The notes below the pieces were generated by a model, which was not told where the DNA came from, did not search any database, and saw only the letters and a program-made list of their open reading frames with translations. Source: Alphaproteobacteria bacterium (GTDB lineage: Bacteria; Pseudomonadota; Alphaproteobacteria; Rhodobacterales; Rhodobacteraceae). From it: a DNA stretch of 6,871 bases. Below are positions 1,090 through 6,871 of this stretch, one piece after another. The stretch lies in assembly GCA_030830465.1 (NCBI GenBank), contig JAURMY010000005.1, forward strand, positions 1 to 6,871, given 5' to 3'. The first letter of the stretch is position 1; every line of letters starts with the position of its first letter. Position numbers and translations under genes: made by a program.

Positions 1090-1587
1090 ATGGAACAGAA
1101 ACGGATTTTCAAGATCGGTGCAGTCACATTGGCGGCGGCCCTTGGGTTTGCGGCGCTTGTACCGGCCTTTGCGGCCAGCGATGCCGACCGCGCAATGGGA
1201 AACGGCCCTGCCGCCCATTTCCTCAGCATGGATGCAAATGGTGACGGAAAGGTTACGGCGGAAGAAATTGATGCCTTCCGCGCCGAACAGTTCAAAACCG
1301 CGGACACGGACGGCGATGGCTTTTTGTCAAAAGACGAGTTGCTGGCGGCTGCGATGACGCGCATGCAGGAACGTATGGCACAGCGCATCGACAAGATGAT
1401 CGCGCATGATGACAAAGACGGCGACGGCAAGATCAGCCTGGCCGAGCAGGACGGCAATCCCAGAATGGACCGCATGTTTTCGCGGTTGGACAAGGATGGG
1501 GATGGCGCGCTTTCGACCGAAGAACTGGCCGCGATCGGCGAGCATGGCTGGCACAAGGGCAAAAAGCACCACAACGACAACGAATAA
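1090..1587 (+). CDS. Exported protein with four EF-hand calcium-binding loops
   Basis: The 165-residue protein begins with a signal peptide: MEQKRIFKIG, a hydrophobic core, then a likely cleavage site after AFA (about residue 28). It should therefore act in the periplasm or outside the cell. Four canonical 12-residue EF-hand loops follow: residues 48-59 (DANGDGKVTAEE), 72-83 (DTDGDGFLSKDE), 108-119 (DKDGDGKISLAE) and 134-145 (DKDGDGALSTEE). Each has Asp/Asn at loop positions 1, 3 and 5, Gly at 6 and Glu at 12, so all four should bind calcium. Loops 1-2 and 3-4 form two pairs joined by a Met/Arg-rich helix. The tail is rich in His and Lys (HGWHKGKKHHND). GGAG at 1080-1083 supports the ATG at 1090. 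The gene lies 73-79 bases upstream of the ECF sigma gene in the same orientation, separated by hairpins. A role as calcium buffer, sensor or target of that sigma factor is inference. Confidence 0.93.
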   Translation: MEQKRIFKIGAVTLAAALGFAALVPAFAASDADRAMGNGPAAHFLSMDANGDGKVTAEEIDAFRAEQFKTADTDGDGFLSKDELLAAAMTRMQERMAQRIDKMIAHDDKDGDGKISLAEQDGNPRMDRMFSRLDKDGDGALSTEELAAIGEHGWHKGKKHHNDNE

Positions 1588-1598
1588 GACAGATGTGT

Positions 1599-1620
1599 CC
1601 GGCGGCCTGATCGCCGCCGG
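1599..1620 (+). terminator. GC-rich hairpin after the EF-hand gene, possible terminator or attenuator
   Basis: An 8-base-pair perfect stem, CCGGCGGC (1599-1606) with GCCGCCGG (1613-1620), closes the six-base loop CTGATC. It starts 11 bases after the EF-hand stop codon. The sequence after it is T-rich but interrupted (GCCTTTGCCTTTT), so termination may be partial. That would let some transcripts read into the sigma gene and give the EF-hand mRNA a higher level than the sigma operon. Confidence 0.55.
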
Positions 1621-1627
1621 GCCTTTG

Positions 1628-1644
1628 CCTTTTGGCGCAAAAGG
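1628..1644 (+). repeat. Inverted repeat just upstream of the sigma gene
   Basis: CCTTTTG (1628-1634) and CAAAAGG (1638-1644) are exact complements around the triloop GCG. The right arm runs into AAGGA (1641-1645), the purine-rich stretch upstream of the sigma start. The repeat may be a second RNA hairpin next to the GC-rich one, or a DNA operator. Function is not shown. Confidence 0.4.
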
Positions 1645-1666
1645 ATTTACGCGATAGGCTATGGCA

Positions 1667-2239
1667 ATGCCCTTTGACGCAATGACGGATATCAGCGACG
1701 ACGCCTTGCTTGTGTTATACGGCAACGGCGACAAAGCGGCGGCTGCGGCCCTGACCGCACGGCTGACGCCGATGGTCTATCGCCTGTCAAAGCGGTTGCT
1801 GGGCAACGCCACCGAAGCGGAAGATGTGACACAGGAAGCGATGCTGAAGCTTTGGAAAATGGCCCCGGACTGGCGTCAGGGCGAGGCGAAGGTCAGCACC
1901 TGGCTTTACCGCGTGACCAGCAATTTATGTCTGGACCGGTTGCGCAAAGGCAAGACCGCGGCCTTGGACGATATTGCCGAACCGGTGGATGAAACACCCG
2001 GCATGGATGCCAGACTGCAGGGGGCCAGCCGTGCCGAGGCGCTGGAATCGGCCCTGCAAGCGCTGCCCGAACGGCAGCGGCAGGCGGTTGTGCTGCGGCA
2101 TTTGGAGGGCCTTGCGAATCCGGATATCGCGGGGATCATGGACCTGAGCATCGAGGCGGTGGAAAGCCTGATTGCCCGGGGCAAACGCACATTGGCGGCG
2201 CGGCTTGCACCGCGAAAGGAAGAATTGGGGATCGCGTGA
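1667..2239 (+). CDS. ECF-type RNA polymerase sigma factor
   Basis: ECF sigma factors carry only regions 2 and 4 and direct RNA polymerase to a small regulon when their anti-sigma factor releases them. Counting from the ATG at 1667 (190 residues), region 2 spans about 32-95, with YRLSKRLLGNATEAEDVTQE, then a Trp-rich helix and STWLYRVTSNLCLDRLRK (-10 recognition). Region 4 spans about 124-180, with ALPERQRQAVVLRHLEGL and a helix-turn-helix ending IEAVESLIARGKRTL. A linker rich in Asp, Glu and Pro joins them, and there is no region 1.1 or 3. Three starts are in frame: 1661, 1667 and 1682. I prefer 1667 because ATAGG (1654-1658) sits eight bases before it; it is too close to 1661, and nothing precedes 1682. 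The stop overlaps the next start by one base, the classic sigma/anti-sigma coupling. The exact ECF subgroup cannot be named from sequence alone. Confidence 0.93.
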   Translation: MPFDAMTDISDDALLVLYGNGDKAAAAALTARLTPMVYRLSKRLLGNATEAEDVTQEAMLKLWKMAPDWRQGEAKVSTWLYRVTSNLCLDRLRKGKTAALDDIAEPVDETPGMDARLQGASRAEALESALQALPERQRQAVVLRHLEGLANPDIAGIMDLSIEAVESLIARGKRTLAARLAPRKEELGIA

Positions 2240-2625
2240 TGACAAAGAACCCGATGACAGAAGACACGAAATTGGAGCTGGACCTTGACGGTCTGTTCGC
2301 CGAATTGCGGGCCGAACCGGCCGGGGTGCCCGACAGGCTGATGCAGGCGGTTGCGCGTGACGCGGCTGCGATGCAGCCGGCGCCGGCCGGGTTGGCCCCG
2401 CGACCGGCAGGCGGTGGACGGTCGTGGCGTGATGTCAATGCGTGGTTTTCGGGCTGGCCGCTTGCCACCGGGCTGGCCGCCTGTTTGGCGCTGGGCGTGA
2501 CCGTGGGCTATACCGGACTGGACCAATTGACGCCGTTTACTCAGGCGCTGACCGAAAGTCTGAGCGTAAGCGGGCCGGCCACGGACGCCACATTCAGCGT
2601 CGATGATTTCTTGAGCGAGGGTTGA
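2239..2625 (+). CDS. Putative single-pass membrane anti-sigma factor
   Basis: The 128-residue protein has a cytosolic N-terminal part (about residues 1-71), one membrane segment (about 72-91, WPLATGLAACLALGVTVGYTG) and a short C-terminal tail (about 92-128) rich in Thr, Ser and Asp. The cytosolic part has an amphipathic stretch, LDLDGLFAELRAEPAGVPDRLMQAVARDAAAM, broken by Pro, and then a Pro/Gly-rich linker before the membrane. It has no HxxxCxxC zinc motif, so it is not a ZAS-type anti-sigma factor. I call it anti-sigma from position and topology: its ATG overlaps the sigma stop by one base and the sensor gene follows two bases after its stop. A GTG one codon earlier is possible. GGGG at 2227-2230 serves as ribosome binding site. 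By analogy CnrY, also short and single-pass, holds CnrH at the membrane. I see no recognisable domain, so function is inferred. Confidence 0.72.
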   Translation: MTKNPMTEDTKLELDLDGLFAELRAEPAGVPDRLMQAVARDAAAMQPAPAGLAPRPAGGGRSWRDVNAWFSGWPLATGLAACLALGVTVGYTGLDQLTPFTQALTESLSVSGPATDATFSVDDFLSEG

Positions 2626-2627
2626 AG

Positions 2628-3098
2628 ATGGAAAAGATCAGGCAAATCTGGACGAAATGGCGCCTGACCCGCGTGGTGTTTGCCGTGTCACTGGGCCTGA
2701 ACCTGATTGTTGGCGGAATGATGATCGGGGCGGTGCTGGGCGGCGGGCCGGGCGAGCATATGCGCGGGATGCGCGACGCATCCGCCCTGGGATTGCGGCC
2801 CTATCTGCGGGCGCTTGATGACAACAACCGCACCGTCTTGTTTCAGACCATCGCCGGTCAACGGCATGATTTTCCGATTGGGCAGGCCCAGATGACCAGG
2901 CATTTGAAGGCCCTGGCCGCAGCGGTTGCCTTGACGCCCTATGATCCGGACGCGGTTGCTGCGGTCATGCTGGCACAGGAACAGGTGATTTCCGGCAGCG
3001 TGACCCGTGGCCAGAAAATTCTGCTGGATTTGCTGGCGGACATGTCGCCGGAGCAACGCGCCGATTTCGCACAGGCATTGCTGCGCAAACGCCATTGA
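2628..3098 (+). CDS. Membrane-anchored periplasmic protein of the heavy-metal sensor (CnrX/ZraP-like) type
   Basis: The 156-residue protein has a basic N-terminus (KIRQIWTKWRLTR), one membrane segment (about residues 16-38) and a mostly helical periplasmic domain. The domain ends with LLADMSPEQRADFAQALL, the MSPEQR-type helix turn seen in Metal_resist/CpxP-ZraP proteins. Candidate metal ligands include H44, M45, M48, H80, M89 and H92; the periplasmic part has no Cys. Conservation of true ligands cannot be judged from one sequence. The ATG at 2628 has GAGG (2617-2620) seven bases upstream; a TTG at 2622 would add two residues and is less likely. The gene sits two bases after the anti-sigma stop and should be translated with it. 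In CnrYXH the equivalent CnrX senses metal and loosens CnrY from the sigma factor. Here the ligand is unknown, and the EF-hand neighbour hints at a divalent cation. Confidence 0.75.
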   Translation: MEKIRQIWTKWRLTRVVFAVSLGLNLIVGGMMIGAVLGGGPGEHMRGMRDASALGLRPYLRALDDNNRTVLFQTIAGQRHDFPIGQAQMTRHLKALAAAVALTPYDPDAVAAVMLAQEQVISGSVTRGQKILLDLLADMSPEQRADFAQALLRKRH

Positions 3099-3114: not shown

Positions 3115-3137
3115 CACGCGCCCGATCAGGCGGCGTG
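3115..3137. other. Stem-loop over the pleD stop codon in the convergent gap
   Basis: CACGC-GCC (3115-3122) pairs with GGC-GCGTG (3129-3137, G3132 bulged) around a six-base loop that contains the pleD stop codon. It sits in the convergent junction between the sensor gene (stop 3096-3098) and pleD. Neither side has a T-run, so it is not a canonical intrinsic terminator, but it may stabilise both 3' ends. Confidence 0.3.
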
Positions 3138-4520
3138 GGAATAGACGGTGACCATATTCCGCCCGTCATGTTTTGACGTGTAAAGTGCTTTGTCGGCCTC
3201 CTCGATCAGAGTGTCGACGATGGCACTGTCCGGGTTGCCAAGCGTTACGCCAATGCTGACCGTGATATTGAGCGTGGCACCGCCGGCGGGCAATTGAAAC
3301 GGCGTCTGTTCAATTTCCCTTCGCAGCCGTTCCGAGGCGCTGCGGGCCTGGTCTTCGGTTGTGTCGGGCATGGCGACGAGAAACTCCTCTCCGCCGATGC
3401 GCGAAATCAGGTCGACGCCGCGCAGGTTTTCCTGAATGCGGCGCGCGAATTCCGCCAGCACACTGTCGCCGCCATTGTGGCCGTGTCGATCATTGACCGA
3501 CTTGAAGTTGTCGATATCCAGCAGCATCAGCGCGAAACCTTTGCCGTTCTTACGCGCCCTCTCCGCAATGCGGGCCAGATGCTGGGTCGCGTAACGGCGG
3601 TTGTAAAGCCCGGTCAATGGATCGGTCACCGCCAGCCGCATCGTGCTGTCAACCGAACTGCGCAACTGGTCAGACATGCGTTTGCGCCTGACCTGTCCGC
3701 GCAGGCGGATGGTCAGTTCGGCGGGATCAAAGCTGTCAAACACATAGTCATGCGCCCCCAGGTCAAGACCTTTGGCCGCCAGATCAAGGTCACCGTCCGG
3801 CACCGCCAGGACCACGGCGGTGTTGCGGGCCTTGGGGCGGGACCGCAGATAGGAAACCAGACGCAAACCGTCACCGAATTTGCCCTGCCGCGCATGGATC
3901 AGGAACACATCGGGCGCGGCGTCGGCGTCTTCGGCCAGACGGATCGCGGTGCCCTCATCCGGGCAGATTTGTGCGTGAAACCCCGGGTGATCCGCCAGCA
4001 TGTTCAACCAGTTCTGGCCCATTTTCGCATCGGTCGGCAGCAGGGCGACCTGTGCCGGCGGGGTGTCCCCAAGGGGCGGTTTCAAGGGGCGTTCGCTCAG
4101 CCCCAGTTCGCGCGAGGTGCGGTCGCGCAGATGCAGTTCGTCCATCATGAATTTTGAGCGCAGCAAATTCCGCACGCGGGAAAACAGCGCCAGATCATTG
4201 ATCGGTTTGGTCAGAAAATCGTCCGCCCCGGCGGCAAGTCCGCGCAAGCGGTCGGCGGTGCCCTGAAGCGCGGTCACAATGATGACGGGGATATGGGTGG
4301 TGCGCGGATCGGATTTCAGGGTCTTGCACACGGCAAACCCGTCCAGATCCGGCATCAGGATATCCAGCAGGATCACATCCGGCAGTTCGGCAAAGGCTTT
4401 TTCCAGCGCCTCGCGGCCATTTTCGGCCTGTATGACCTCATAATAGGCGGCCGCGAGTTTTGAGCGCAGAATAACCCTGTTGGTCGCGATATCATCTACC
4501 ACCAGAATTCGACCGGACAT
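3126..4520 (-). CDS. pleD: PleD-like response regulator with diguanylate cyclase (REC-REC-GGDEF)
   Basis: The enzyme makes c-di-GMP from two GTP after phosphorylation-driven dimerisation. At 464 residues it is close to Caulobacter PleD (454). REC1 (about 1-122) has the acidic pair D9/D10, phospho-acceptor D53 in VILLDILMP, T83 and K105 (KP). REC2 (about 155-278) is degenerate: the acceptor position reads VFLIHA with H209, and the usual Lys region reads YVFDSF. An adaptor-like second receiver is also known in PleD. The cyclase domain (about 296-462) begins DPLTGLYNRRY, has the metal/substrate-binding region LLDIDNFKSVNDRHGHNGGD and the active GGEEF at 376-380. RGVD at 367-370, five residues before GGEEF, is an intact I-site for product inhibition. 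AAAGG (4532-4528) lies seven bases before the ATG. No divK precedes it, unlike the Caulobacter divK-pleD pair. It should act in cytosol or at the membrane face in motile/sessile control (inference). Confidence 0.95.
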   Translation of the reverse strand: MSGRILVVDDIATNRVILRSKLAAAYYEVIQAENGREALEKAFAELPDVILLDILMPDLDGFAVCKTLKSDPRTTHIPVIIVTALQGTADRLRGLAAGADDFLTKPINDLALFSRVRNLLRSKFMMDELHLRDRTSRELGLSERPLKPPLGDTPPAQVALLPTDAKMGQNWLNMLADHPGFHAQICPDEGTAIRLAEDADAAPDVFLIHARQGKFGDGLRLVSYLRSRPKARNTAVVLAVPDGDLDLAAKGLDLGAHDYVFDSFDPAELTIRLRGQVRRKRMSDQLRSSVDSTMRLAVTDPLTGLYNRRYATQHLARIAERARKNGKGFALMLLDIDNFKSVNDRHGHNGGDSVLAEFARRIQENLRGVDLISRIGGEEFLVAMPDTTEDQARSASERLRREIEQTPFQLPAGGATLNITVSIGVTLGNPDSAIVDTLIEEADKALYTSKHDGRNMVTVYSHAA

Positions 4521-4620: not shown

Positions 4621-4917
4621 ATGCCCGAATTGGGGATCATGTCGGCAAAGCAGGCGGAAGCCGTTGCGATTCAAGCGCTTGGCTGGATTGCCATGGATGA
4701 CGAAATAACATCGGGGTTTTTAAACAATTCTGGTGCAGGTGTTAACGACCTGGCCGCCGCCGCCAAAGACCCCCAGTTTCTGGGGGCGGTCCTTGATTAT
4801 GTTCTGATGGATGATTCCCTTGTCATCGGGTTTTGCGACCATGCCGGCCTGCCTTACGAGACCCCCTATCGCGCCCGGCAATCCCTGCCCGGCGGAGACA
4901 TGGTGAACTGGACCTGA
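4621..4917 (+). CDS. DUF3572 family protein
   Basis: The 98-residue acidic, soluble protein matches the DUF3572 family as I know it from alphaproteobacteria. Family-like stretches are AEAVAIQALGWIAMDDE (about 13-29), FLGAVLDYVLMDDSLVIGFCD (about 53-73) and the end GLPYETPYRARQSLPGGDMVNW. It has no signal peptide, membrane segment or cofactor motif and is predicted mainly helical. The ATG at 4621 has a strong AGGAG at 4610-4614. A second ATG at 4642 (MSAKQAEA) is where many relatives seem to begin, but it lacks a good ribosome binding site here. It is divergent from pleD; this pairing is, as far as I recall, seen in other Rhodobacteraceae, but I could not check. Its stop is 15 bases from the convergent stop of the dehalogenase fusion. 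Function is unknown. Confidence 0.88.
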   Translation: MPELGIMSAKQAEAVAIQALGWIAMDDEITSGFLNNSGAGVNDLAAAAKDPQFLGAVLDYVLMDDSLVIGFCDHAGLPYETPYRARQSLPGGDMVNWT

Positions 4918-4943
4918 GGCGCGTTTACCGGTTCAAAGGTCCA
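4909..4943. repeat. Inverted repeat spanning the DUF3572 and dehalogenase stop codons
   Basis: TGGACCT (4909-4915) and AGGTCCA (4937-4943) are exact complements with a 21-base loop. Both convergent genes end in this heptamer, so the arms are coding in each gene and the two stop codons are in the loop. It could fold in either transcript and serve as a bidirectional 3'-end structure. There is no T-run, so termination is not assured. Confidence 0.35.
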
Positions 4944-6871
4944 CCTCGATCTCGCCATCCGGCCGGGCCGCGCGCGACTGGCACAGAATGACCTGGGTTT
5001 CGCGCTGTTTGTTGGACAGAACAAAATCGCGATGTTCGACCTCGCCGGAAATCAGGCCGCATTTGCACACACCGCAGATCCCGTCGGAACATTTGGTGTC
5101 CACATGAATGCCGTTTTCTTGCAGGATATCGGTTGCGGATTTGTCGGCGGGCACGTGCAATACGCGGCCCGACCGGGCAAGCCTGACTGTGAACGGGTGG
5201 TTTTCATATTCCGGCAGTTCGGGAACCGTGAAATATTCGCAGTGCCGGTTGTCATCGGGAAAGCCGTTTGCCTCGGCGGCAGCAAGAACCGATTGCATAT
5301 AGATGTCCGGGCCGCAGGTATAAACATGGGCGCCGGGTTGGAATTTCAGGACCTTGTCAAGCCGGCACCGGGTGCCCTGATCGGTAAAGTGCAGATTGAC
5401 CCGGTCCCGCCACGGCACCTTGGCCAGATCGTCCAGAAACCCGGCATGTTCCCGGCGCGATGCCGAATAATGCATCACGAAATCCGCGTTCAGGGCGTGC
5501 AGGCGATGCGCCATGGCAATCAGGGGGGTGATGCCGATGCCGCCGCCCATCAGGTAGGTTTTTGACGCGCTTTCAACCAGCGGAAAATGGTTCAGCGGCT
5601 TTGAGATAAACACCATCCGGCCGACCTCAAAGATCCGGTGCATCAGTTTTGAGCCGCCCTTGCCATGATCCTCGCGCAGTACCGCAATCTGGTATCTGCT
5701 ACGGTCGGCGGGGTCGCCTGACAGGGAATATTGCCGGAAAAATTCGGGGGCCACGACCACGTCAATATGGGCGCCTGCCGCAACTTCGGGCATGGGGCTG
5801 TCATCGGGCATGGCGAATTCATATTTGACGACGCCCGCCGCCATGGGCTCCACCTTGGCCACCCGCACCCGCAGCACCGGCGAGGCGGTCTTGTCGGCGC
5901 TGTACACATGTTCCGGCGGTGCGCCTGCGGCACGGCGGCGCTTGTGCTCGGCGGCGGGGATCATCGCCTGATAGGCCGCGATGGCGGCTTCGCGGTCCAT
6001 CGGGAACGGCCAGCTGTAGGGCGGCGGGGCCAGCGTGGCCGGATAGACCGCCAGCGTCTGATCCTCAAACCGCAGGTTCAGGGATTTTGACAGGCTGCGC
6101 CGGTTGACCGGATGGCCGGACGGCTTGTAGGGGCCGTCATCGGTCATCTCAAGATCCCACCACCATTTTTTCACGGCGTTGATCTCGCCCTTGCCCAGCA
6201 GGTCATCCAGCCGCGCCAGCGCTTTTGCACTGAAGGGCGCATTCATCGCGGCCCAGCGGAACGGGCGTTCGGCGAAAATGCCTTCCAGATTCCAGGGACA
6301 GGTTTTCATGCAGCGCCCGCACATGGCGCCGTTTTTCTGAGAAACGCGATAGGTGGTGCAACGCTGGCTGTCGGATTTCCAGATTTCATAGCCGTTGAAC
6401 ATCAGCTTGGGTCCGGCGGTGATCGCGCCAGAAGGGCATTCGCGGGCGCATTTGTTGCAAGCTTCGCAGAATTTTTGCAGGCCGAAATCAATCGGCTTGT
6501 CATGGGCCATCGGCAGATCGGTGGTGACAACCCCGGATTTCAGCCGCGGCCCCAGAAACGGATTGAGGATAACCTCGCCGATGCGGCTGACCTCGCCCAG
6601 ACCGGACAACAGCAACAGGGGGGGCTGCAACACCTCGTCATCCATCACCGAATGCACCCGGGCCGAATAGCCAAGGTTGCGGATCTGTTGGGCGATCACC
6701 CCGCCGATCAGGCTGAACCGCAAATAGGCCCGCATGGATTGCGCGCAGGCGATCCAGTCATCGCCAGAAGCGCCTTCCATGGTTTCGTGCCCCTGATCCA
6801 CCACCATCGAGACGGCATTCTTATGGTAAGGCGTCAGCGGTTCGCCAGCGGCGTTATGGCTGTAATAGGCA
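4933..6871 (-). CDS. rdhA: Reductive dehalogenase fused to an FMN/[2Fe-2S] NAD(P)H oxidoreductase (5' end outside window)
   Basis: The frame is open to the window edge, giving 645 visible complete codons. The Met at 6807 is not taken as the start because AYYSHNAAGEPLTPYHKNAVS precedes it in frame and continues the domain. Numbering from that Met, the RdhA module has IRNLGYSARVHS (42-53), GLGEVSR (69-75), VVTTDLPMAHDKPIDFG (93-109) and two [4Fe-4S] sets: C114/C117/C120/C124 (CxxCxxCxxxCP) and C150/C163/C166/C170 (Cx12CxxCxxxCP). After a linker (about 250-310) comes a phthalate-dioxygenase-reductase-like module: FMN motif RQYS (358-361), NAD(P)H motif GGGIGITP (421-428), CGP (498-500), and a plant-type [2Fe-2S] domain with C573/C578/C581/C609. 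The order matches BhbA-type catabolic dehalogenases, which remove halogen from aromatics in the cytosol using cobalamin and NAD(P)H. The cobalamin-binding and catalytic Tyr region and any signal peptide lie largely outside. The substrate is unknown; epoxyqueuosine-reductase-type chemistry is unlikely given the fusion. Confidence 0.9.
   Translation of the reverse strand, partial: AYYSHNAAGEPLTPYHKNAVSMVVDQGHETMEGASGDDWIACAQSMRAYLRFSLIGGVIAQQIRNLGYSARVHSVMDDEVLQPPLLLLSGLGEVSRIGEVILNPFLGPRLKSGVVTTDLPMAHDKPIDFGLQKFCEACNKCARECPSGAITAGPKLMFNGYEIWKSDSQRCTTYRVSQKNGAMCGRCMKTCPWNLEGIFAERPFRWAAMNAPFSAKALARLDDLLGKGEINAVKKWWWDLEMTDDGPYKPSGHPVNRRSLSKSLNLRFEDQTLAVYPATLAPPPYSWPFPMDREAAIAAYQAMIPAAEHKRRRAAGAPPEHVYSADKTASPVLRVRVAKVEPMAAGVVKYEFAMPDDSPMPEVAAGAHIDVVVAPEFFRQYSLSGDPADRSRYQIAVLREDHGKGGSKLMHRIFEVGRMVFISKPLNHFPLVESASKTYLMGGGIGITPLIAMAHRLHALNADFVMHYSASRREHAGFLDDLAKVPWRDRVNLHFTDQGTRCRLDKVLKFQPGAHVYTCGPDIYMQSVLAAAEANGFPDDNRHCEYFTVPELPEYENHPFTVRLARSGRVLHVPADKSATDILQENGIHVDTKCSDGICGVCKCGLISGEVEHRDFVLSNKQRETQVILCQSRAARPDGEIEVDL

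What the first reader, a model, noticed from the sequence alone, without database searches (positions are those of the whole stretch)
4933..6871. Self-sufficient reductive dehalogenase: RdhA module fused to its own NAD(P)H/FMN/[2Fe-2S] reductase
Seen: two bacterial-ferredoxin-type [4Fe-4S] motifs in RdhA context, then RQYS, GGGIGITP, CGP and a Cx4CxxC...C ferredoxin motif in one open frame. Known: respiratory RdhAs are TAT-exported and need a membrane anchor RdhB; a catabolic class typified by BhbA of Comamonas carries a fused reductase and is cytosolic. Inferred: this organism can use NAD(P)H to dehalogenate, probably a halogenated phenol or other aromatic, in oxic conditions. No rdhB lies downstream, which fits the catabolic class. 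Substrate and physiological role in such bacteria are poorly known.
Basis: partly seen in the sequence, partly recalled or inferred. Interest (0 to 1): 0.75.

Follow-up and report, generated by a model that had tools for sequence, protein, structure and literature searches.

The report
Self-powered bromophenol-removing enzyme in marine bacteria
This is most of a gene for an enzyme that probably strips bromine or iodine from phenol-like molecules using the cell's own NADPH through a reductase built into the same protein; the enzyme type is already known and common in marine Rhodobacteraceae, but in many close relatives it comes with a neighbouring control gene and a DNA switch site that I did not find described.

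Summary
Complement(4933-6870) is one open frame of 645 codons: the C-terminal part of a cobalamin-type reductive dehalogenase (TIGR02486, 170 bits, cut-off 160; QueG model 25, cut-off 200) fused to a phthalate-dioxygenase-reductase-like module. The Tyr-Lys-Arg catalytic set, eight [4Fe-4S] and four [2Fe-2S] cysteines are present and identical in 120 of 120 listed relatives. The gene's 5' end lies outside the window. It is a new member of a known class: BhbA (53% identical) and JtRdhA, which uses NADPH on bromo- and iodophenols in air. In a sample of the relatives' family, 113 of 295 genomes match. What I add comes from relatives. In the window's clade, 27 of 43 loci have a co-directional MarR-type regulator just upstream (in the wider family sample 13 of 113). 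The palindrome TARTTGACNNNGTCAAYTA lies in front of MarR in 27 of 30 MarR-bearing loci, and near rdhA in 0 of 50 loci without MarR. In 12 of 20 genomes without rdhA, the flanking DUF3572 and HAD genes abut. So MarR and rdhA look like a regulated cassette. Whether the window's organism has the MarR cannot be seen. Interest is modest.

The parts
4933..6870 (-). rdhA-PDOR fusion gene, 3' part (645 codons + stop; 5' end beyond the right edge)
   Evidence: open frame; TIGR02486 170.2 bits, cut-off 160.35; 120 listed relatives 73-83% identical
6091..6870 (-). RdhA catalytic module, C-terminal part (frame residues about 1-260)
   Evidence: NpRdhA 4ras/6zxu about 1e-112; TIGR02486 matched at residues 16-226; domain limit approximate
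6724..6726 (-). Tyr49, equivalent of NpRdhA catalytic Tyr426
   Evidence: alignment; Tyr in 120 of 120 listed relatives
6538..6540 (-). Lys111, equivalent of NpRdhA Lys488
   Evidence: Lys in 120 of 120
6346..6348 (-). Arg175, equivalent of NpRdhA Arg552
   Evidence: Arg in 120 of 120
6436..6468 (-). C135 xx C138 xx C141 xxx C145 P: first [4Fe-4S] cysteine set
   Evidence: PF12838/PF13484; 120 of 120 conserved
6298..6360 (-). C171 ... C184 xx C187 xxx C191 P: second [4Fe-4S] cysteine set
   Evidence: as above
4936..5877 (-). phthalate-dioxygenase-reductase-like module: FMN (RQYS), NAD(P)H (GGGIGITP, CGP) and [2Fe-2S] domains
   Evidence: 2PIA 6.9e-59, residues 332-636; most of this region modelled with good confidence, Foldseek 2pia E 1.7e-32, TM 0.68 by target length
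4981..5091 (-). C594 xxxx C599 xx C602 ... C630: plant-type [2Fe-2S] ligands
   Evidence: PF00111 1.2e-9; 120 of 120 conserved
4621..4917 (+). DUF3572 gene, convergent with rdhA; marks the conserved chromosomal site
   Evidence: PF12096 9.4e-29; found downstream of rdhA in 30 of 80 loci
3126..4520 (-). PleD-type response regulator/diguanylate cyclase; syntenic flank, no evidence of a link to dehalogenation
   Evidence: NF007135 506 bits, cut-off 474; downstream of rdhA in 27 of 80 loci

Best explanation
The gene encodes a cytosolic, self-sufficient catabolic reductive dehalogenase. SHOWN by sequence: an RdhA module with the Tyr/Lys/Arg catalytic set and two [4Fe-4S] sites, fused to an FMN/NAD(P)H/[2Fe-2S] reductase. 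INFERRED: NADPH gives a hydride to FMN; single electrons pass through the [2Fe-2S] and the two [4Fe-4S] clusters to base-off cobalamin; the halogen of an ortho-bromo- or ortho-iodophenol, bound through its hydroxyl by Ser45/Lys111/Arg175, sits on the cobalt; Tyr49 donates the proton, halide leaves, and the phenol enters ordinary aromatic catabolism. INFERRED from relatives only, and less sure (about 0.6): in this lineage the gene is a fixed chromosomal trait, often in an operon behind a MarR-type regulator that binds TARTTGACNNNGTCAAYTA and is probably released by a halophenol or related ligand.
For: Profiles and structures. Catalytic and cluster residues identical in 120 of 120 listed relatives. 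Ser45 and Met46, equivalents of pocket residues S422 and M423 of NpRdhA (PMC7565698, passages), are invariant in 34 aligned sequences. JtRdhA: NADPH-dependent, bromo/iodo-specific, active in air, lacks a TAT signal, has a PDOR fusion (PMC10463259). In the BhbA plasmid record ligA and an extradiol dioxygenase beta gene lie upstream, one gene away, and in Nitratireductor sp. OM-1 pobA and extradiol dioxygenase genes lie near the fused gene. MarR and operator.
Against: No activity was or could be measured. The N-terminal half is outside the window. No aromatic-catabolism gene is among the nine window proteins scanned. Two residues of the NpRdhA pocket differ here: A419 is Cys42 and N452 is Val75 (read from the alignment), so the substrate range may differ. 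50 of 80 loci lack the MarR upstream, among them L012 in the window's own five-row clade, and in the family sample only 13 of 113 rdhA genomes have a close MarR beside rdhA. The MarR also occurs without rdhA, with its palindrome in G006 and without it in G014, so it may have other targets.
Confidence: 0.86

Rival explanations
1. A fused RdhA whose natural job is not growth on halophenols but detoxification or salvage, for example debrominating or deiodinating algal bromophenols or iodinated tyrosines that would poison the cell.
For: The gene sits among unrelated genes, with no aromatic pathway in the window, unlike BhbA and OM-1. It is widespread: 113 of 295 genomes in the family sample. MarR regulators often answer to phenolic toxins (recalled). 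JtRdhA handles iodophenols well.
Against: In E. coli W, JtRdhA supported growth on 3-bromo-4-hydroxyphenylacetate (PMC10463259 abstract). TRAP transporter genes lie beside the MarR-rdhA pair in Aminobacter and in a few loci, which speaks for uptake of a substrate.
Confidence: 0.4
2. QueG-like epoxyqueuosine reductase or another class III cobalamin enzyme mis-read as a dehalogenase.
For: QueG is a relative, and its model gives a weak hit (25.3 bits).
Against: The QueG model needs 200 bits while the RDH model exceeds its cut-off. The NpRdhA catalytic set is kept. A PDOR fusion is not a QueG feature (recalled).
Confidence: 0.01
3. A decaying or non-functional copy.
For: The 5' end is unseen. Two matches in the family sample are broken or short: a second match in G196 has two stops, and G163 is a fragment.
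Against: 645 codons without a stop, all catalytic and cluster residues intact, 73-83% identity to the 120 listed relatives.
Confidence: 0.04

Closest known systems
JtRdhA, Jhaorihella thermophila self-sufficient reductive dehalogenase (PMC10463259)
   Same: Domain order RdhA then PDOR; Tyr/Lys/Arg set; two [4Fe-4S] sites; catabolic class
   Different: I did not have its sequence, so identity to the window was not measured. The paper's text has no MarR regulator (one search found only 'marred')
BhbA of Comamonas sp. 7D-2, plasmid pBHB (NC_021077, L081)
   Same: Fused RdhA-PDOR of the same architecture, 53% identical over the window's frame
   Different: On a plasmid typed conjugative IncP, near dioxygenase genes (PMC10463259 describes the cluster as bromoxynil degradation); no MarR among the 14 listed features and no operator match
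NpRdhA, Nitratireductor pacificus (PDB 4RAS, 6ZXU; PMC7565698)
   Same: Catalytic module and active-site polar residues
   Different: No fused reductase; pocket residues A419 and N452 are Cys42 and Val75 here
Ros_A3X954 debrominase, Roseobacter sp. MED193 (PMC13101508)
   Same: Marine Roseobacter debrominase without TAT signal
   Different: Its published motifs and their positions point to an unfused protein (my inference); they resemble a separate protein found in relatives (L083-L085), not this fusion
Phthalate dioxygenase reductase (PDB 2PIA)
   Same: Sequence and fold of the C-terminal module
   Different: Stand-alone protein serving a dioxygenase

Membership tests
Self-sufficient catabolic reductive dehalogenase (BhbA/JtRdhA type) | Cobalamin-dependent RdhA catalytic domain | tested here: met
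   TIGR02486 170.2 bits over a 160.35 cut-off although the piece is partial; cobalamin itself not tested
Self-sufficient catabolic reductive dehalogenase (BhbA/JtRdhA type) | Tyr-Lys/Arg catalytic residues | tested here: met
   Y49/K111/R175 align with Y426/K488/R552; 120 of 120 listed relatives
Self-sufficient catabolic reductive dehalogenase (BhbA/JtRdhA type) | Two [4Fe-4S] binding sites | tested here: met
   eight cysteines, PF12838 and PF13484
Self-sufficient catabolic reductive dehalogenase (BhbA/JtRdhA type) | C-terminal PDOR module (FMN, NAD(P)H, [2Fe-2S]) in the same chain | tested here: met
   one frame; 2PIA match residues 332-636; fold match
Self-sufficient catabolic reductive dehalogenase (BhbA/JtRdhA type) | No TAT export signal | tested here: inconclusive
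   N-terminus outside the window; a simple twin-arginine pattern occurs in the first 60 residues of 0 of 120 listed relatives, a few of which are themselves shorter than full length
Self-sufficient catabolic reductive dehalogenase (BhbA/JtRdhA type) | Duplicated cobalamin-domain N-terminal half | tested here: inconclusive
   not in the window; in G001-G003 a second, weaker match to the same query lies upstream in the same open frame, and P0001 aligns with NpRdhA over both halves
Self-sufficient catabolic reductive dehalogenase (BhbA/JtRdhA type) | NADPH-dependent dehalogenation | not testable with these tools
   needs an enzyme assay
Respiratory reductive dehalogenase (RdhA/RdhB) | rdhB membrane-anchor gene next to rdhA | tested here: not met
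   downstream neighbour is the convergent DUF3572 gene; upstream of 6871 not seen
QueG epoxyqueuosine reductase | TIGR00276 equivalog score | tested here: not met
   25.3 bits against a cut-off of 200

The most novel reading that the evidence does not exclude
In the window's lineage the debrominase is not a stray pollutant-degradation gene but an old chromosomal trait: a MarR-rdhA cassette held at one site (between DUF3572 and HAD genes), in which the MarR protein senses halophenols through the operator TARTTGACNNNGTCAAYTA. The same MarR-operator-rdhA arrangement, with a divergent TRAP transporter, occurs on a plasmid of another order (Aminobacter pANY103b). This would give marine Rhodobacteraceae of this clade an inducible, oxygen-tolerant route in the bromine and iodine cycle.
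Probability: 0.5. Interest if true: 0.45.

Novelty: new member of a known kind. Interest (0 to 1): 0.3.

Why it matters
Reductive dehalogenation is usually discussed as an anaerobic respiratory process. About four in ten genomes of the sampled family carrying a fused, probably oxygen-compatible version (113 of 295) would make debromination or deiodination an ordinary ability of abundant aerobic marine bacteria. The predicted regulator and operator turn the open question of the natural substrate into a ligand-binding test.

Tried and rejected
Structure prediction of the window's frame (34 sequences) gave mean pLDDT 56.8. Most of the reductase half was usable, but most of the RdhA half was below 50, probably because its N-terminal half is missing, so nothing is claimed from it. 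Cobalamin riboswitch near rdhA: none at the gathering threshold in the window and eight loci (one tRNA only). TctC-type transporter as in pBHB: 0 of 80 loci. LysR (13 of 80, divergent, close upstream) and a YcsF gene (4 of 80) are other neighbours; those loci lie in the other large clade, so they do not explain this lineage. The HAD gene ('haloacid dehalogenase-like' in Pfam) might suggest a dehalogenation cluster, but it is a generic HAD protein (the best specific models are phosphatases, below their cut-offs) that stays beside DUF3572 in 12 of 20 genomes without rdhA; rejected as a partner. A simple longest-frame gene caller chose shadow frames in several loci, so the neighbour counts come from tblastn instead. 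The tree outgroup is poor (L086 has an end branch of 9.44), so the root is not relied on.

Full report
WHAT IS THERE. The minus-strand frame from 6870 to 4936 is open for 645 codons and ends at the stop 4935-4933; its 5' end is beyond the window. It matches the NCBIfam reductive dehalogenase model TIGR02486 at 170.2 bits (cut-off 160.35), while the QueG model scores 25.3 against 200. Against solved structures the first half matches NpRdhA (about 1e-112) and the second half phthalate dioxygenase reductase (6.9e-59, residues 332-636), with self-sufficient P450s next. From the alignment, NpRdhA Tyr426, Lys488 and Arg552 correspond to Tyr49, Lys111 and Arg175. In an alignment with the 120 listed relatives these three, the eight [4Fe-4S] cysteines, the four [2Fe-2S] cysteines and the glycines of the nucleotide loop are identical in 120 of 120. 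AlphaFold2 modelled most of the reductase module with good confidence and Foldseek placed it with 2PIA (E 1.7e-32); the RdhA half was not modelled reliably.

FULL LENGTH. The listed full-length relatives are about 1064 residues; the closest is 82% identical over the whole frame (6003 proteins passed 1e-20, 120 were listed). P0001 aligns with NpRdhA from near its N-terminus onward. A twin-arginine-like pattern was found in the first 60 residues of 0 of 120 listed relatives. These are statements about relatives; the window does not show its own N-terminus.

KNOWN CLASS. I saw the outline and abstract, section 4 and passages of PMC10463259: JtRdhA of Jhaorihella thermophila is a fused, TAT-less RdhA-PDOR enzyme, NADPH-dependent in air and under nitrogen, active on bromo- and iodophenols, inhibited but not turned over by chlorinated compounds. 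Most catabolic RdhAs are said there to carry the PDOR domain, and its tree legend already names Ruegeria pomeroyi and Tropicibacter RdhAs. BhbA itself (plasmid pBHB) is 53% identical to the window frame. From the abstract and passages of PMC13101508: Ros_A3X954 of Roseobacter sp. MED193 is a marine debrominase, and putative bhbA homologues are stated to be widely distributed in the Roseobacter clade. So the window's gene is a new member of a known kind.

ACTIVE SITE. From passages of PMC7565698, NpRdhA binds the phenol hydroxyl through S422, K488 and R552 and lines the pocket with F290, F310, P311, A419 and M423, with N452 and F291 moving slightly. By the numbering S422, M423, Y426, K488 and R552 are kept (Ser45, Met46, Tyr49, Lys111, Arg175), while A419 is Cys42 (Cys in 113 of 120) and N452 is Val75 (invariant in 34 sequences). 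F290, F291, F310 and P311 fall outside the window. The polar half is kept and part of the rest changed, so ortho-halophenols are the likely substrates but the exact range is open.

HOW COMMON. In an evenly drawn sample of the family of G003 (the genome of L005), 113 of 295 genomes match at E 1e-100 or better. Nearly all matches span residues 1 or 2 to about 645; G289, G105 and G163 are partial, and G196 (one of them broken) and G142 have two matches each.

NEIGHBOURHOOD. In the 80 kept loci, by tblastn with distances from an approximate rdhA start: a co-directional MarR gene within 1.2 kb upstream in 29 (30 with L032, slightly further up), a divergent HAD gene within 1.2 kb in 36, an MTTB-type gene within 3 kb in 28, a convergent DUF3572 gene downstream in 30, and PleD downstream in 27. 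The window shares the downstream part: DUF3572, PleD, a metal-resistance-domain protein, an ECF sigma factor, an EF-hand protein, DUF983 and Nudix. MarR and rdhA nearly touch: in L017 MarR ends at 2270 and the rdhA frame starts at 2272. In a tree of 90 sequences the window lies with L001, L004, L005 and L012 (SH-aLRT 99); three of those four have the MarR. Next comes a 44-row clade (97) in which 27 of 43 loci have the MarR, and outside which none of the 80 loci shows the DUF3572 or HAD neighbour; the only MarR loci outside it are L032, L053 and L065. Twenty-nine of 87 inner branches are weak and the outgroup is long.

WIDER FAMILY, AGAINST GENERALISING. In the family sample 48 of 295 genomes have a close MarR (E 1e-25). 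Comparing the lists by hand, 30 of those 48 also have rdhA, but in only 13 is the MarR beside it; so 13 of 113 rdhA genomes have the linked MarR at that threshold, and the other matches look like paralogues elsewhere. The MarR link is a feature of the window's clade, not of the family.

EMPTY SITES. I queried the 20 genomes without rdhA that were listed (of 182) and 8 with it. In 12 of the 20 the DUF3572 and HAD matches lie 9 to 142 bases apart on one strand. In G014 only the MarR lies between them. In G006 the MarR and two other long frames lie between them. The remaining 6 were on different contigs or lacked a HAD match. Of the 8 with rdhA, four (G002, G003, G136, G159) have it between the two genes; in G241 the site is empty and MarR-rdhA lies on another contig.

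OPERATOR. A palindrome search in front of MarR in the 30 loci gave several similar sites, from which I wrote TARTTGACNNNGTCAAYTA. Allowing 3 mismatches at 16 fixed positions over 1,605,967 bases of the 80 loci, it lies upstream of rdhA, in front of MarR, in 26 of 30 MarR loci. L032 makes 27: its site was tallied as far because its MarR is further away. L011, L016 and L030 have none. It is near rdhA in 0 of 50 loci without MarR (L056 holds no sequence upstream of rdhA, L068 only about 565 bases), and apart from L032 only four other sites occur. Of 300 scrambled half-sites the best reached 3 MarR loci, mean 0.18. The motif was derived from some of these same loci, so the independent support is: the 0 of 50; the Aminobacter plasmid, where a 1-mismatch site ends at 7229 and MarR starts at 7231; and G006 (1 mismatch, at the MarR start). 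Against: L081 (BhbA), L096 and L097 have no site, nor has G014, whose MarR stands alone. Genome-wide with 2 mismatches, 15 of 16 genomes have at least one site, but the reversed-pattern control finds more (46 against 31 on one strand, summed from the table), so the genome-wide count itself shows nothing. Of the 14 rdhA genomes in that call, 10 have a site beside the rdhA-linked MarR; G172, G157, G292 and G064 have not at that threshold.

LITERATURE ON THE REGULATOR. Searches (catabolic reductive dehalogenase; 12 papers; reductive dehalogenase, MarR, regulator, aerobic; 15 papers; two of debromination, MarR family, reductive dehalogenase; 15 of 46 listed) showed no title or abstract start describing this pair. 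I did not read most of the listed papers, and the library lacks most subscription journals.

MECHANISM. Shown: domain order, catalytic and cluster residues, no rdhB downstream. Inferred from JtRdhA and NpRdhA: NADPH to FMN to [2Fe-2S] to two [4Fe-4S] to cobalamin, halogen-cobalt contact, proton from Tyr49, release of halide. Inferred from relatives only: MarR control. Not known: the natural substrate, whether for growth or detoxification, and whether the window's own genome has the MarR.

Noticed in passing
L083:2792-4012, L084:1368-2588, L085:3594-4805: All three relatives' genomes checked (G001, G003, G002) carry a second, unfused 403-406 residue protein; in L083 and L085 it exceeds the RDH cut-off (168 and 165 bits; L084 was not scored). 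Their motifs (C..CT.CADACP and CAICMRVCP) resemble those published for the Roseobacter debrominase Ros_A3X954.
   Followed up: partly
L086:209-1168: A third RDH-like protein of 319 residues in G001, below the RDH cut-off (109 bits) and far below QueG's (53 of 200); G003 has a match in a frame of similar length, not inspected. Function unclear.
   Followed up: no
L083:30-767: A cobalt-precorrin-6A reductase gene (270 bits, cut-off 231) lies about 2 kb from the unfused RDH gene, so this relative may make its own cobalamin.
   Followed up: no
L065, L053, L082 (Aminobacter plasmid pANY103b): A TRAP transporter substrate-binding protein gene is divergent from the MarR-rdhA pair, with large-permease genes beyond it. 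A candidate halo-aromatic uptake system.
   Followed up: partly
L096 (Nitratireductor sp. OM-1 plasmid pOM-1): A fused rdhA near pobA and extradiol dioxygenase genes points to halogenated 4-hydroxybenzoate as its substrate.
   Followed up: no
   Followed up: no
L015: The record title names Nocardioides marinus, an actinobacterium, but its rdhA is 77% identical to the window's, and a genome in the G003 family sample (G241) has a contig of the same length, 486386 bases, with rdhA. The title looks wrong or the assembly contaminated.
   Followed up: no
window 1090-3098: EF-hand protein, ECF sigma factor (PRK12524, 291 bits, cut-off 264), an unassigned 129-codon frame with a possible membrane segment (perhaps an anti-sigma factor; my reading) and a Metal_resist-domain protein in a row: a metal- or envelope-stress-like module, apparently unrelated to rdhA.
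   Followed up: no
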